From Natronomonas pharaonis DSM 2160 (GTDB lineage: Archaea; Halobacteriota; Halobacteria; Halobacteriales; Haloarculaceae): a DNA stretch of 64,000 nt. The stretch is from the NCBI RefSeq assembly GCF_000026045.1, contig NC_007426.1:2294001-2358000 (forward strand), in the 5' to 3' direction. Of this stretch, positions 25,976-57,163 are shown one piece after another. The translations under genes were made by a program, and so were the position numbers. Within the stretch, counting starts at the first letter, position 1. Each line of letters opens with the position of its first letter. The notes below the pieces were generated by a model, which did not search any database, was not told the DNA's origin, and worked only from the letters and a program-made list of their open reading frames with translations.

Positions 25976-26165
25976 CTCGAAGCCCGACGACGGAACGCAC
26001 CGGCCACGACCGCAGCCGCGGCGGCGGCCATCTTGATTCAGCGAGGGAATCCCGGCGTTTACGCCGGGAGGGAATCGCGTAAGCTCCGGGCGACAACCGC
26101 CGGGACTGACGCCTGATTGAATACCAGACGTAAGAGTTTAGTTACATGGATGCTTACATAGCTCT

Positions 26166-26306
26166 GTGCGAACCGACGTAGACATGGAGCGGGATGGCGA
26201 CCTCCACGAACGGGTTAAAGAGTATGCCCGTGAGAACGGTATCCGCCACCCGCGAGCATACCGCGAGCTAATCGAAAAGGGATTAGAAGCCACTGATGCC
26301 GACTAA
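26166..26306 (+). CDS. Small ribbon-helix-helix-like protein inside IS element A
   Basis: This encodes 46 residues from GTG 26166 (VRTDVDMERDG); ATG 26184 is an alternative. The pattern is a short N-terminal strand, helix DLHERVKEYARENG and helix HPRAYRELIEKGLEA, which fits a ribbon-helix-helix DNA-binding fold. The stop lies 11 bases inside the start of tnpB, so it is co-transcribed and translationally coupled. It occupies the position where related elements carry tnpA. It may regulate tnpB. No function is established. Confidence 0.65.
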   Translation: MRTDVDMERDGDLHERVKEYARENGIRHPRAYRELIEKGLEATDAD

Positions 26307-27537
26307 GACGCTCGAAGCGACACTCGCGCCGCCGACAGCTCACAAAGAGCGAAAGCTACAGCAACTCCACGACCTGTATCACGAGGGGCTGCACGAAGCG
26401 TTCGAGGCTGGCGCTGATACGCAGTCGGCAGTCAACGACATTGTGACGCCCTACGACCTGCCGTATCAGGTCAAAGACGCACTCAAAAACTACGTGCCGT
26501 CGTTGGACGATGCACAGGAATTGAGTGACGACCACCCGACACGGATGGTCAACCGTGCCGCCAGCTTCGACTACTCAGAGGAGCGAACACACAGTTACGT
26601 GTGGGAAGTCCCGCAACCCGGACGTGGGACGAATTTCTGGGTACCGCTTCGCATCAATCCTGAACAGGAGCAACTGTGGGCCGACCTACTGGACGGGAAC
26701 GTGTCGCCCGGTCAACTCCAACTGATACAGAATCGCACATCATGGAAGCTACACGTCGCCGTCGAGTATTCCGTCGAGGACGCCGACTACGATACCGACA
26801 GCGACGACGTGACGCACATCGGTCTGGACATTGGTGAATCGTCGCTTATCATGGGCTGTGCCCTCAGAGACGGTTCACCGACCCGCCCGCTTGTGTGTGA
26901 CGGGAGCCGTGCGAAGCATCTCCGCAAAGAGATGCACACCACCCTCAAACGCCTGCAAGAGCGTGACGCCGCCGAGTGGCGCATAGACGAGCGATTCGAC
27001 CACTACCAGAACGCCCTCACGGATATTGTCGAGAAGGCGTCTCGGCAGGCTGTCGAGTACGCCCGTGGATTCGAGAAGCCGGTGCTGGTGATGGAGGATC
27101 TGACGTACATCCGCGAATCGTTGGACTGCGGCAAATTCATGAACCGGCGACTCCACGCATGGGCGTTCGCTCGGTTACAGGACCGAATTGAGGACAAAGC
27201 GCGAGCCGCTGGTATCCCGGTCGAATACGTGAACGCCGCATACACCTCGCAAACGTGCCACGAGTGCGGTCACATCGGCTATCGAGACAGTGGCGGAGCG
27301 TTCCACTGTACGAACGACGGGTGCCACATCACGACGTTTGAGGGTGATATAAACGGCGCTATCAATATCGCACAGCGGGCAGACCCGTGGGGAGAGAGCG
27401 TGCCGCTGAAACCGGCAGGCAATGACTCGCCTCGGGATGGGAGTGCCTGTGACAGCACCACGACCCACACCGAACAGAGCCAATCAGAGCAGATGACGCT
27501 CGGTGAGGTCGGGTCGAAACCCACTGCCAGTAATTAG
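26296..27537 (+). CDS. tnpB: TnpB (IS200/IS605 OrfB) RNA-guided nuclease, element A
   Basis: This encodes 413 residues. The RuvC-like catalytic residues are visible as D in IGLDIGESS, E in LVMEDLTYI and D in FEGDINGAIN, with a zinc finger CHECG ... CTNDGC between the last two. TnpB proteins are RNA-guided DNA nucleases, ancestral to Cas12, using a guide RNA made from the right end of the element. It is 413 residues against 418 for the close relative at 55204-56460. All catalytic positions are intact, so it is probably functional. Confidence 0.92.
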   Translation: MPTKTLEATLAPPTAHKERKLQQLHDLYHEGLHEAFEAGADTQSAVNDIVTPYDLPYQVKDALKNYVPSLDDAQELSDDHPTRMVNRAASFDYSEERTHSYVWEVPQPGRGTNFWVPLRINPEQEQLWADLLDGNVSPGQLQLIQNRTSWKLHVAVEYSVEDADYDTDSDDVTHIGLDIGESSLIMGCALRDGSPTRPLVCDGSRAKHLRKEMHTTLKRLQERDAAEWRIDERFDHYQNALTDIVEKASRQAVEYARGFEKPVLVMEDLTYIRESLDCGKFMNRRLHAWAFARLQDRIEDKARAAGIPVEYVNAAYTSQTCHECGHIGYRDSGGAFHCTNDGCHITTFEGDINGAINIAQRADPWGESVPLKPAGNDSPRDGSACDSTTTHTEQSQSEQMTLGEVGSKPTASN

Positions 27538-27616
27538 CTGGTATTCCCACGCAGGGAAGCCGCGCCGTTCACGGCGCGGAGGATGTCACTAGCAAAAAGA
27601 ACGACCGCGGACGACG

Positions 27617-54859: not shown

Positions 54860-54871
54860 TCCGGTCTCGTA

Positions 54872-55151
54872 TCAATCGTCGGCCGGCGCGCCGGACCGCG
54901 CCGGAGGCTCCGAGAGCAGCCAGCCGCCGGTCGTTGCCTCCTCGGCGACGTGGGGCTGGAACACCCACGCCGAGAGCACCAAAATCGGCACCATCGTCAC
55001 GCCGACAACGGCAAAGCCCCAGTGGAGGCTCGGAAGGAAGTACGCTGAGAAGACGAGCGGGTATATCGACCCGCCAACGGAGCCGATACCACCGACGATA
55101 CCGGCGACGCTACCGGAGTCGTCGGGAAACATCGCCGGCACCTGCGCGAAG
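54872..55151 (-). pseudogene. 3' fragment of a NarK-like nitrate/nitrite MFS transporter, truncated by IS element C
   Basis: The residues FAQVPAMFPDDSGSVAGIVG, GGSIYPLVFSAYFLPSL and VPILVLSAWVF match the last helices and tail of NarK-type major facilitator transporters, and the frame ends with a normal acidic C-terminus. The frame runs straight into the right end of the IS element at 55152. On the far side of the IS (beyond 57000) no narK 5' part is found, so most of the gene was lost. Only about 93 codons remain. Confidence 0.8.
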
Positions 55152-55203
55152 GTGACATCCTCCGCGCCGTTCACGGCGCGGCTTCCCTGCATGGGAATGC
55201 CGG

Positions 55204-56460
55204 CTAACTACCGGCAGTGGGTTCCGACCCGACCTCTCCGAGCGTCATCTGCCGTGGTTGGCTCTGTTCGGTGGGGGTCGCGGCGCTGTCACAGGCGCTC
55301 CCATCCCGTGAGATGTCATCGCCCGCCGGTTTCAGAGGCAGGCTCTCACCCCACGGGTCGTGGCGGTCAGCGATGTTGACCGCCGCGTTGATGTCTGCGT
55401 GGTACTCCGATACCCAACACTCGTCGTTCTGACACCGGAACTCATCGCCGTCCCGATACCCGATGTGCCCGCACTCGTGGCACGTCTGGCTCGTGTACTC
55501 CGGGCGGATGTATTCGACCGGGATGCCAGACTCTCGCGCTTTGTCCTCGATGCGCTCCTGCAAGCGAGCGAACGCCCATGCGTGGAGGCGTCGGTTCATC
55601 CACTCGCCGTAATCGAGGTCTTCGCGGATGTACGAGAGGTCTTCCAGAACGACCACAGGCTTCTCGAATCGGCAGGCGTACTCGATTGCCTGCCGAGACG
55701 CCTTTTCGATGATGTCTGTGAGTGCGTTCTGGTAGTGGTCGAACCGTTCGTCAATCCGCCACTCGGCGGCGTCACGCTCTTGGAGGCGCTTGAGCGTCGT
55801 GTGCATCTCTTTGCGGAGGTGACGAGCGCGGCCACCGTTGATGAGTAGTGGGTCGGTCGGAGTGCCCTGCTCGCAGGCACAGCCCGCGAGCAGGTGTGCT
55901 TCGCCAATGTCGAAGCCGACTGGTGTTACATCGTCGTCTGTCGGTTCGTAGCCCGGTTCTTTAACCGGAAACTCGACGGTGACGTGAAGCGTCCACGACG
56001 TGCGGTGACGTTGCAGGCGGAGTTGTCCTGCCGACGCTTCACCGTCCACGATGTCGTGCCACAGTTCTTCTTGAGCGGGGTTGATACGGAGTGGTATCCA
56101 GAAGTTCGTCCCGCGACCGGGCTGTGGTACCCACCACGTAAACTCGTAGTCGCGTTCCGGCGAATGGTCGAACTCAGCGGCTTGGTTGGTGAGCCGAACC
56201 GGGTGGTCGTCGTCCAACTCCTGTGCATCGTAGGTTCCGTGCAGTTGCGGAACGTAGTTACACAGGGCCGCCTTCGCCTGATACGGCAGGTCGTAGGGAG
56301 TCACCACGTCGCTGGTGGCGGTCATCGTCTCGCACCCGGCCTCAAACGCCTCGTGGAGTCCTGCCCGGTAGGTGTCGAGCAGGTCGCACAGTTTGCGCTC
56401 TTTGTGGGCTGTCGGCGGGGCGAGCGTGGCCTCCAGCGTTTTCGTGGTTGTCGCGGTCAT
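55204..56460 (-). CDS. tnpB: TnpB RNA-guided nuclease, element C
   Basis: This encodes 418 residues, closely similar to the TnpB of element A along its whole length (shared TLEATLAPPTAHKERKL, QPGRGTNFW, HLRKEMHTTLKRLQERDAAE). Catalytic residues: D in VGFDIGEAH, E in VVLEDLSYI and D in HADINAAVN; zinc ligands CHECG and CQNDEC. It starts one base after the tnpA stop region on this strand, so both come from one transcript. It should cut DNA guided by an RNA derived from the right end. Confidence 0.93.
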   Translation of the reverse strand: MTATTTKTLEATLAPPTAHKERKLCDLLDTYRAGLHEAFEAGCETMTATSDVVTPYDLPYQAKAALCNYVPQLHGTYDAQELDDDHPVRLTNQAAEFDHSPERDYEFTWWVPQPGRGTNFWIPLRINPAQEELWHDIVDGEASAGQLRLQRHRTSWTLHVTVEFPVKEPGYEPTDDDVTPVGFDIGEAHLLAGCACEQGTPTDPLLINGGRARHLRKEMHTTLKRLQERDAAEWRIDERFDHYQNALTDIIEKASRQAIEYACRFEKPVVVLEDLSYIREDLDYGEWMNRRLHAWAFARLQERIEDKARESGIPVEYIRPEYTSQTCHECGHIGYRDGDEFRCQNDECWVSEYHADINAAVNIADRHDPWGESLPLKPAGDDISRDGSACDSAATPTEQSQPRQMTLGEVGSEPTAGS

Positions 56461-56461
56461 G

Positions 56462-56854
56462 CTACTGGTTTTCCACGTAGTCCATCAGCACGTCGATGCT
56501 CACTTGACCGGTCGTGGCGAGGAAATACCCCGGCTGCCAGAACGCATCTTCGAGCGTCTGTTTCACCTCAGGGTACTCCTGGCGAATCCGGCGGGATGTG
56601 ACGCCCTTGAGCGAGTTGATGAACTTCGTGAGGTCGGTGGTGGGTTTGGTCGTGAACAGAATGTGAACGTGGTCGGTGCCGCCGTCCACGTTCTTGATGT
56701 CGGCCTCGAAGTCCTCTGCAATCTCGTGAGCGACTTCAGCCACGCGCTCCAGCCGCTCATCGGTGAGGATGTCGGCGCGGTACTTCGTGACGGTCACGAA
56801 GTGATATTGAAGCGCGTAGACCGTGTGCGACCCGGATTGCAGGTGATACTCCAT
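56462..56854 (-). CDS. tnpA: TnpA, IS200-type Y1 (HUH) transposase, element C
   Basis: This encodes 130 residues, the usual length for IS200-type transposases. The HUH metal-binding motif is in TDHVHILF near 61-68, and the catalytic Tyr is in WQPGYFLATTG near 109. It would excise and insert single-stranded DNA using the subterminal hairpins as recognition sites. It is upstream of tnpB in the same unit. Because element A has nearly identical ends, this enzyme could also mobilise A. Confidence 0.95.
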   Translation of the reverse strand: MEYHLQSGSHTVYALQYHFVTVTKYRADILTDERLERVAEVAHEIAEDFEADIKNVDGGTDHVHILFTTKPTTDLTKFINSLKGVTSRRIRQEYPEVKQTLEDAFWQPGYFLATTGQVSIDVLMDYVENQ

Positions 56855-57163
56855 TTGGCCTCACCAAATACAAGACACCCAATCTCAATAACTCTTGTGC
56901 CGTTGGGTATTCGGTCGGGCAAAACCGCGTGGACTGTCGAACCGGGCTTACGCGATTCACGCCCGCCGTGAACGGCGGGATTCTCTCGCTGAATCAAGAT
57001 AGATTCGATGCGATGTGCGTTTTCGATGCGACGCTGTCCAAGCGCCCCTCTTGCCATTGTTTCTGGGGATGGACTGCGGCCACATACGGCTGAGCGTTGA
57101 TATTAGTTCGATATATGGCGACGCCACGAACAAGTGGTTCTCGCCCGCGGCAATGGGCGTCGG

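What the first reader, a model, noticed from the sequence alone, without database searches (positions are those of the whole stretch)
26030..27589. TnpA-less IS whose ends are shared with a complete IS 29 kb away, with compensatory hairpin changes
Elements A (26030-27589) and C (55152-57000) have almost identical ends. In the left hairpin the stem differs (CCCGGCG/CGCCGGG versus CCCGCCG/CGGCGGG), yet pairing is kept, which is direct evidence that the DNA hairpin is selected. This means C's TnpA could move A in trans.
Basis: seen in the sequence. Interest (0 to 1): 0.6.

Follow-up and report, generated by a model that had tools for sequence, protein, structure and literature searches.

The report
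Transposase-less jumping gene with borrowable ends
Element A is a small archaeal mobile element without its own transposase that keeps DNA ends matching a complete element 29 kb away; its left end carries a short DNA "guide" that, across about a hundred relatives, changes in step with the four-base site the element sits next to.

Summary
The genome is Natronomonas pharaonis. A (26032-27589, TnpB only) and C (55152-56998, minus strand, TnpA+TnpB) are IS200/IS605-type elements with nearly identical ends. Alone it is not "direct evidence" of selection, because quasi-palindrome repair can also produce it.

Stronger evidence is new here. The target is a 4-base CYAT. Its variable bases covary with guide bases +15/+16 and with two bases 3' of the hairpin (-3/+15 p=3e-21; -4/+16 p=2e-10), the base-triplet geometry of IS608. 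A reads CCAT; C reads CTAT.

A is not a recent deletion of C. It belongs to a TnpB-only clade found in several genera, with a conserved 46-aa ORF before tnpB. TnpA-less elements with such ends do spread: three 98-99% identical copies lie at different sites in one genome. C's is the only TnpA found with these ends in N. pharaonis, but no sampled TnpA-bearing element uses A's guide code and some A-type hosts lack a C-type TnpA. Movement of A by C's TnpA is plausible, unproven.

The parts
26032..27589 (+). Element A: TnpB-only (IS1341-type) IS200/IS605-family element
   Evidence: LE and RE shared with many loci; boundary from flank conservation and two empty-site comparisons
26028..26031 (+). Target site of A, CCAT (cleavage site CL; presumed TAM of its TnpB)
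   Evidence: Flank conservation starts at -4 and covaries with guide bases +15/+16
26032..26079 (+). Left end of A (48 nt) with lower stem GCGA/TCGC and 7-bp hairpin CCCGGCG-TTTA-CGCCGGG
26046..26049 (+). Left guide GL = GGAA (+15 to +18); G15 pairs C-3, G16 pairs C-4, A18 may pair T-1
   Evidence: Covariation of -3/+15 and -4/+16; same topology as IS608 (PMC5934647); A18:T-1 by analogy only (both invariant)
26051..26068 (+). Left imperfect palindrome (hairpin), +20 to +37
   Evidence: Covarying pairs 24:33 and 26:31
26070..26071 (+). Third bases of the two base triplets (X=G39, K=G40)
   Evidence: MI +15/K 0.759, +16/X 0.49; -3/K Fisher 3e-20
26166..26306 (+). 46-aa ORF (GTG start) overlapping the tnpB start; ribbon-helix-helix-like, conserved in TnpB-only lineages
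   Evidence: Homologues upstream of TnpB in many loci, none (E<0.01) among loci where tnpA was detected; dN well below dS; two-helix model, mean pLDDT 73; weak profile hits to ArtA 3gxq and protein 56B 2kel
26296..27537 (+). tnpB of A (413 aa), RNA-guided nuclease family
   Evidence: Cas12f1-like_TNB E=3.9e-17, NF040570 guided_TnpB E=3e-33
27505..27602 (+). Probable 3' part of the omega-RNA of A plus start of its guide
   Evidence: Sub-threshold Rfam HgcC hit E=3.6e-5; position inferred from TnpB biology
27556..27559 (+). Right guide GR = GAAG
   Evidence: GAAG in 73 of 87 distinct right ends with CR=TCAC; pairing by analogy with IS608 CR TCAA / GR GAAT
27560..27579 (+). Right hairpin CCGCGCCG-TTCA-CGGCGCGG
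   Evidence: Sequence; same stem in C with loop TGAA
27586..27589 (+). Right cleavage site CR = TCAC, end of A
   Evidence: TCAC in 83 of 87 distinct right ends
55152..56998 (-). Element C: complete element with tnpA and tnpB
56999..57002 (-). Target site of C, CTAT
56951..56998 (-). Left end of C; guide AGAA at 56981-56984; hairpin CCCGCCG-TTCA-CGGCGGG; triplet bases G39 T40
56462..56854 (-). tnpA of C (130 aa, Y1 transposase)
   Evidence: PF01797 E=7e-41; NF033573 E=5e-43
55204..56460 (-). tnpB of C (418 aa), 71% identical to TnpB of A

Best explanation
Element A is a non-autonomous IS200/IS605-family element of the TnpB-only (IS1341) type. [quoted passage not shown] TnpA recognises the folded left and right hairpins. 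Cleavage and target choice are set by the element's own DNA: left guide bases +15/+16 pair with the flanking target at -3/-4, and two bases just 3' of the hairpin complete base triplets, as in IS608. A carries the code G15/G16 with G39/G40 and so reads CCAT; C carries A15/G16 with G39/T40 and reads CTAT. A and C can therefore share a transposase while choosing different sites. C's TnpA is the only candidate found in this genome. The TnpB of A presumably acts as an omega-RNA-guided nuclease that retains the element. Shown here: shared ends, stem covariation, target-guide-triplet covariation, spread of an A-type TnpB-only clade, and multiplication of transposase-less elements with these ends. 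Inferred: single-strand chemistry, TnpA binding, the identity of the trans TnpA, and TnpB function.
For: Target-guide covariation: among 103 distinct left ends, of all 230 flank x element column pairs the top mutual-information pairs are -3/+15 (0.694), -3/K (0.646), -4/+16 and -4/X (0.316 each); triplets T:A*T 55 and C:G*G 33 for -3; C:G*G 84 and T:A*A 10 for -4; Fisher p 2.7e-21 and 2.2e-10. In the 49 left ends from loci found only by TnpB protein similarity (plus A and C), -3/+15 is 17/0/0/27, p=1.5e-12. These are the pair and triplet relations of the IS608 structure (A16:T-3*T43, A17:T-4*A42; PMC5934647). -5 and beyond are unconserved. Stem covariation. A-type clade with full SH-aLRT support, all TnpB-only, in several genera. 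TnpA-less and TnpB-less elements with these ends: three copies 98-99% identical at three sites in genome G050. C's TnpA is the only one of three in the genome with these ends nearby.
Against: No TnpA-bearing element in the protein-found sample uses the G15 code (0 of 21 against 17 of 27 TnpB-only, p=2e-6; clade structure not corrected). G072 and G013 hold A-type elements but only TnpAs about 31-33% identical to C's, and none was found in G117. The TnpA locus of G050 examined has ends of another type, so the driver of its three copies is unknown. A is single-copy in N. pharaonis. No empty site for A itself was found.
Confidence: 0.72

Rival explanations
1. A is moved in trans, but not by C's TnpA: the A lineage depends on another TnpA with the same hairpin and the C:G*G code, carried on plasmids, viruses or other hosts, and arrived in N. 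pharaonis as a finished insertion.
For: Guide state G15 absent from all 21 TnpA-bearing elements of the protein-found sample; A-type elements in genomes without a C-type TnpA; a C-type element lies in Halobacterium phage ChaoS9, so such elements travel.
Against: In IS608, changing the guide retargets insertion with the same TnpA (PMC5934647), so a code change need not require a new TnpA. C's TnpA is the only one in this genome found with these ends.
Confidence: 0.35
2. A is an immobile relic or domesticated TnpB locus; its ends look like C's only through common descent.
For: One copy of A in the genome; no empty site found; TnpB-only loci are known to persist in haloarchaea in great diversity (PMC3119063).
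Against: The A-type clade sits behind CCAT at different flanks in several genera; the left end lies outside the presumed omega-RNA yet is conserved, with coordinated guide and triplet changes; tnpB and the small ORF are open, and the small ORF is under purifying selection.
Confidence: 0.15
3. The compensatory stem changes are mutational: template switching within the palindrome copies one arm onto the other, so pairing is kept without selection on the hairpin.
For: Both changed stem pairs (24:33, 26:31) lie near the loop of a near-perfect palindrome; C:G to G:C flips dominate.
Against: Stem pairs 20-23 and 25 and lower stem 10-13/44-47 hardly vary, which mutation bias alone does not predict; the guide-target covariation links the element to host flanking DNA and cannot arise this way.
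Confidence: 0.2
4. A is a recent internal deletion of a C-like element in which tnpA was lost.
For: Same gene order apart from tnpA; TnpB 71% identical; ends nearly identical.
Against: A falls in a well-supported TnpB-only clade separate from the TnpA-bearing one; a conserved 46-aa ORF precedes tnpB in A's lineage; different guide code.
Confidence: 0.03

Closest known systems
IS608 (Helicobacter pylori), TnpA/LE/target complex
   Same: Subterminal hairpins; 4-nt target kept at the left flank; guide 5' of the hairpin; pairs to -3 and -4 with third bases at two consecutive positions 3' of the hairpin (T:A*T at -3 and T:A*A at -4 also occur here) (PMC5934647)
   Different: Target CYAT or TCAT instead of TTAC; natural C:G*G alternatives; A lacks tnpA; triplet bases at +39/+40 rather than +42/+43 in the short ends
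IS1341-type (TnpB-only) elements of N. pharaonis, ISNph5-ISNph22, and PATEs of Haloquadratum
   Same: TnpB-only elements with near-terminal palindromes and no target duplication; palindromes shared with small non-coding PATEs (PMC3119063). A is probably one of the 38 tnpB loci counted there
   Different: That paper left the mobility of TnpB-only elements unresolved and, in the text read, gives no guide, target or triplet covariation; which ISNph number A has could not be checked
ISH12-type elements (C-type copy in halovirus ChaoS9)
   Same: Serial tnpA-tnpB order of C; the same left end with code CTAT (L114)
   Different: Carry tnpA; many copies have a longer branched left hairpin. The link to ISH12 is by literature description, not by sequence comparison here
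IS605-type elements of Halanaerobium hydrogeniformans
   Same: Elements with intact ends but mostly no intact tnpA, proposed to be moved by TnpA in trans (PMC7290912)
   Different: Bacterial; degraded copies of one family rather than a TnpB-only lineage with its own target code

Membership tests
IS200/IS605 family | Y1 (HUH) transposase TnpA in the autonomous relative | tested here: met
   C TnpA: PF01797 E=7e-41; A itself lacks tnpA
IS200/IS605 family | Subterminal hairpins at both ends, no terminal inverted repeats | tested here: met
IS200/IS605 family | Insertion 3' of a short target kept at the left flank, no target duplication | tested here: met
   4-nt CYAT with unconserved -5; two coding-gene empty-site comparisons consistent with it; no empty site for A itself
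IS200/IS605 family | Guide sequence 5' of the hairpin pairs with the cleavage/target site | tested here: met
   Covariation -3/+15 and -4/+16
IS200/IS605 family | Single-strand excision, circle junction and strand bias | not testable with these tools
   Needs biochemistry or an excision assay
IS1341 group (TnpB-only) | tnpB with family ends, no tnpA between the ends | tested here: met
   no TnpA match between A's ends
OMEGA / TnpB RNA-guided nucleases | TnpB family protein with RuvC and zinc-finger regions intact | tested here: met
   PF07282 E=3.9e-17; NF040570 above cut-off; C-x2-C motif and DIGE/EDL/DIN segments present in both proteins
OMEGA / TnpB RNA-guided nucleases | omega-RNA covering the right end with a guide from the flank | tested here: inconclusive
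   Only a sub-threshold HgcC hit at the right end of A and C; no expression data
Mobilisable partner of element C | Ends recognised by C's TnpA | not testable with these tools
   Sequence compatible except the guide code, which differs from all sampled TnpA-bearing elements

The most novel reading that the evidence does not exclude
Haloarchaeal TnpB-only elements have switched their target several times by coordinated changes of a natural DNA guide code (target base : guide base * third base; T:A*T or C:G*G at -3, C:G*G or T:A*A at -4) while keeping hairpins readable by a shared TnpA. One transposase could then serve many element lineages with different target sites, each target also acting as the TAM of its own TnpB, and the TnpB-only lineages carry a small ribbon-helix-helix regulator in place of tnpA.
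Probability: 0.35. Interest if true: 0.7.

Novelty: new variant of a known kind. Interest (0 to 1): 0.48.

Why it matters
The genome holds about ten times more TnpB loci than TnpA loci (24 against 3 found here; 38 against 3 in PMC3119063), and how TnpB-only elements spread is an open question raised in that paper. The natural guide-target-triplet covariation gives a sequence rule from which an element's target can be predicted. It supplies evolutionary evidence for triplets so far known from IS608 structures, and a clean test: whether one TnpA moves elements with different codes.

Tried and rejected
Target TTGAT (as in ISDra2), suggested by the string ATCTTGAT at both left ends: rejected, because conservation across independent insertions covers CYAT and the bases after CTT vary by lineage. 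A first numbering with a 5-nt target YATCT: replaced after two empty-site comparisons showed two extra bases CT in the joined flanks. Empty site for A by joined flanks in 20 Natronomonas genomes: only the own genome matched both halves. Empty site of the ChaoS9 copy among phages: only ChaoS9. L074, inserted in another tnpB, gave protein-level matches spanning the junction, but the alignment was not printed and is not used. Recent loss of tnpA from C: rejected by the tree (quick method, careful search not finished). The 52-53%-identical TnpA of G050 and relatives as driver: its upstream end is of another type. Pfam and NCBIfam gave no family for the 46-aa ORF.

Full report
Where and what. The contig sizes (2,595,221 and 130,989 bp) match those of Natronomonas pharaonis DSM 2160 as I know them; the tnpA count of three agrees with the literature. 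A has tnpB only; C, on the minus strand 29 kb away, has tnpA and tnpB. The TnpBs are 71% identical. This genome holds 24 TnpB and 3 TnpA matches in my searches; the literature counts 38 and 3 and registers 22 bounded elements as ISNph5-ISNph22 (PMC3119063). A belongs to a known class, and probably to that list.

The left hairpins are CCCGGCG-TTTA-CGCCGGG (A) and CCCGCCG-TTCA-CGGCGGG (C). In 48 nt the two left ends differ at six positions: 15, 24, 29, 33, 38 and 40. Positions 24 and 33 are the compensatory pair. On 35 distinct ungapped left ends from many haloarchaea, pair 24:33 is C:G 16, G:C 12, T:A 4 and T:G 2, and pair 26:31 is C:G 16 and G:C 16; 98.2% of cells pair (89.0% shuffled, 0 of 500 shuffles as high), and the covariation score is 0.219 against 0.059. 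Selection on the hairpin is the likely reason, but quasi-palindrome correction could give the same double changes, so this alone is not decisive. At the right end the same hairpin is presumably part of the omega-RNA, so only the left end speaks for DNA structure.

Boundaries. In 103 distinct left ends with their flanks, bases -1 to -4 are conserved (T, A, T/C, C/T) and -5 to -10 are not; C+1 T+2 T+3 are nearly invariant. Two insertions in coding genes, L055 against L040/L039 and L238 against L199/L164, have two extra bases in the joined flanks if CT is counted as flank. Hence the element starts CTTG and the target is CYAT, kept at the left flank. A sits behind CCAT, C behind CTAT.

Guide code. 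Without assuming a model, mutual information over all flank x element columns ranks -3/+15, -3/K, -4/+16 and -4/X on top, where X and K are the two bases just 3' of the hairpin (+39, +40 in the short ends). +15/K and +16/X are the top pairs inside the element. The states are T:A*T (55) or C:G*G (33) for -3:+15*K, and C:G*G (84) or T:A*A (10) for -4:+16*X. Restricting to loci found only through TnpB similarity leaves -3/+15 at 17/0/0/27. The IS608 crystal structure has this topology: A16 pairs T-3 with T43 as third base, A17 pairs T-4 with A42 as third base (PMC5934647). A class-wide pattern search, with zero matches to the reversed control pattern, gave the same result in 150 listed sites (25/7/2/106, p=3.5e-19; there the -3 base was still numbered -5 and +15 was +13). 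Insertions are at different sites, so the flanks are largely independent, but the element rows are related by descent and no phylogenetic correction was made; the TCAT group is mostly one TnpB clade.

Lineage of A. TnpBs 90-96% identical to A's form a supported clade of TnpB-only elements in Halapricum, Halorussus, Halorientalis, Halovenus and others. In it, where left ends were read, the target is CCAT (in two copies TCAT by the -4 base) with G15. Left ends of A-type, C-type and much more distant TnpB elements are near-identical over their whole branched hairpins. N. pharaonis itself carries five left ends of this kind, two of them next to TnpBs only 25-29% identical to A's and one with no TnpB found nearby.

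Trans mobilisation. The other two TnpA loci of N. pharaonis show no end of this type within 4.5-4.9 kb stretches (pattern search). Transposase-less elements with these ends multiply: in G050 (the genome of L034, Halapricum hydrolyticum) three 350-352-bp copies are 98-99% identical with unrelated flanks, behind ACAT, CTAT and CTAT. That shows trans mobilisation of the end type, not of A by C. Against a simple picture, 0 of 21 TnpA-bearing elements have G15 while 17 of 27 TnpB-only ones do, and several hosts of A-type elements lack a close TnpA.

The small ORF. A 46-aa ORF (26166-26306) overlaps the start of tnpB. Homologues stand in the same place in A-type, 75%-type, 66%-type and much more distant TnpB elements, but not where tnpA was detected. 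Synonymous changes far exceed replacements (for example dN 0.106, dS 1.26 between A and L042). Pfam and NCBIfam have no family for A's ORF. A profile weakly matches ArtA and protein 56B (E 0.015 and 0.14), which I recall as ribbon-helix-helix proteins, and the model shows two helices at modest confidence. A small DNA-binding regulator is likely; its role is unknown.

Verdict. The element is a TnpB-only member of a known family. The new part is the natural guide-target-triplet code and the different code of A and C. Whether natural guide-target covariation in this family has been described in subscription journals could not be checked here.

Noticed in passing
window 26166-26306; L042, L066, L091, L247 and others: Conserved 46-47-aa, probably ribbon-helix-helix ORF just upstream of tnpB in TnpB-only elements, in the place where tnpA stands in complete ones; strong purifying selection.
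   Followed up: partly
L203, L219, L220 (genome G050); L156, L157, L202, L223, L244: Elements of 350-517 bp with these ends but neither tnpA nor tnpB that carry a sub-threshold sot0042 (omega-RNA) match (E down to 1e-9): possible omega-RNA-only elements that would need both proteins in trans.
   Followed up: partly
left ends of L034-L036, L041-L046, L048, L050, L114, L127, L130, L246-L248; right ends of L036, L115, L119, L124, L130: Near-identical inserts of roughly 45-100 nt made of small palindromes inside the end hairpins of both TnpA-bearing and TnpB-only elements; the hairpin foot is kept. Resembles the SMR-A insertions in near-terminal palindromes of PMC3119063.
   Followed up: partly
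window 27505-27602 (+) and 55139-55236 (-): Rfam HgcC (RF00062), an RNA family of its own, matches the right ends of both elements weakly (E 3.6e-5 and 0.011); HgcC may be related to TnpB right-end RNAs.
   Followed up: no
window about 54870-55192 next to element C: The right flank of C appears by eye to encode the C-terminal part of a membrane transporter while the left flank looks unrelated, so C may sit at a broken or rearranged gene.
   Followed up: no
TnpA-bearing left ends: TnpA-bearing left ends in the sample lack G15 and nearly all use CTAT; CCAT and TCAT were seen only with elements without tnpA.
   Followed up: partly
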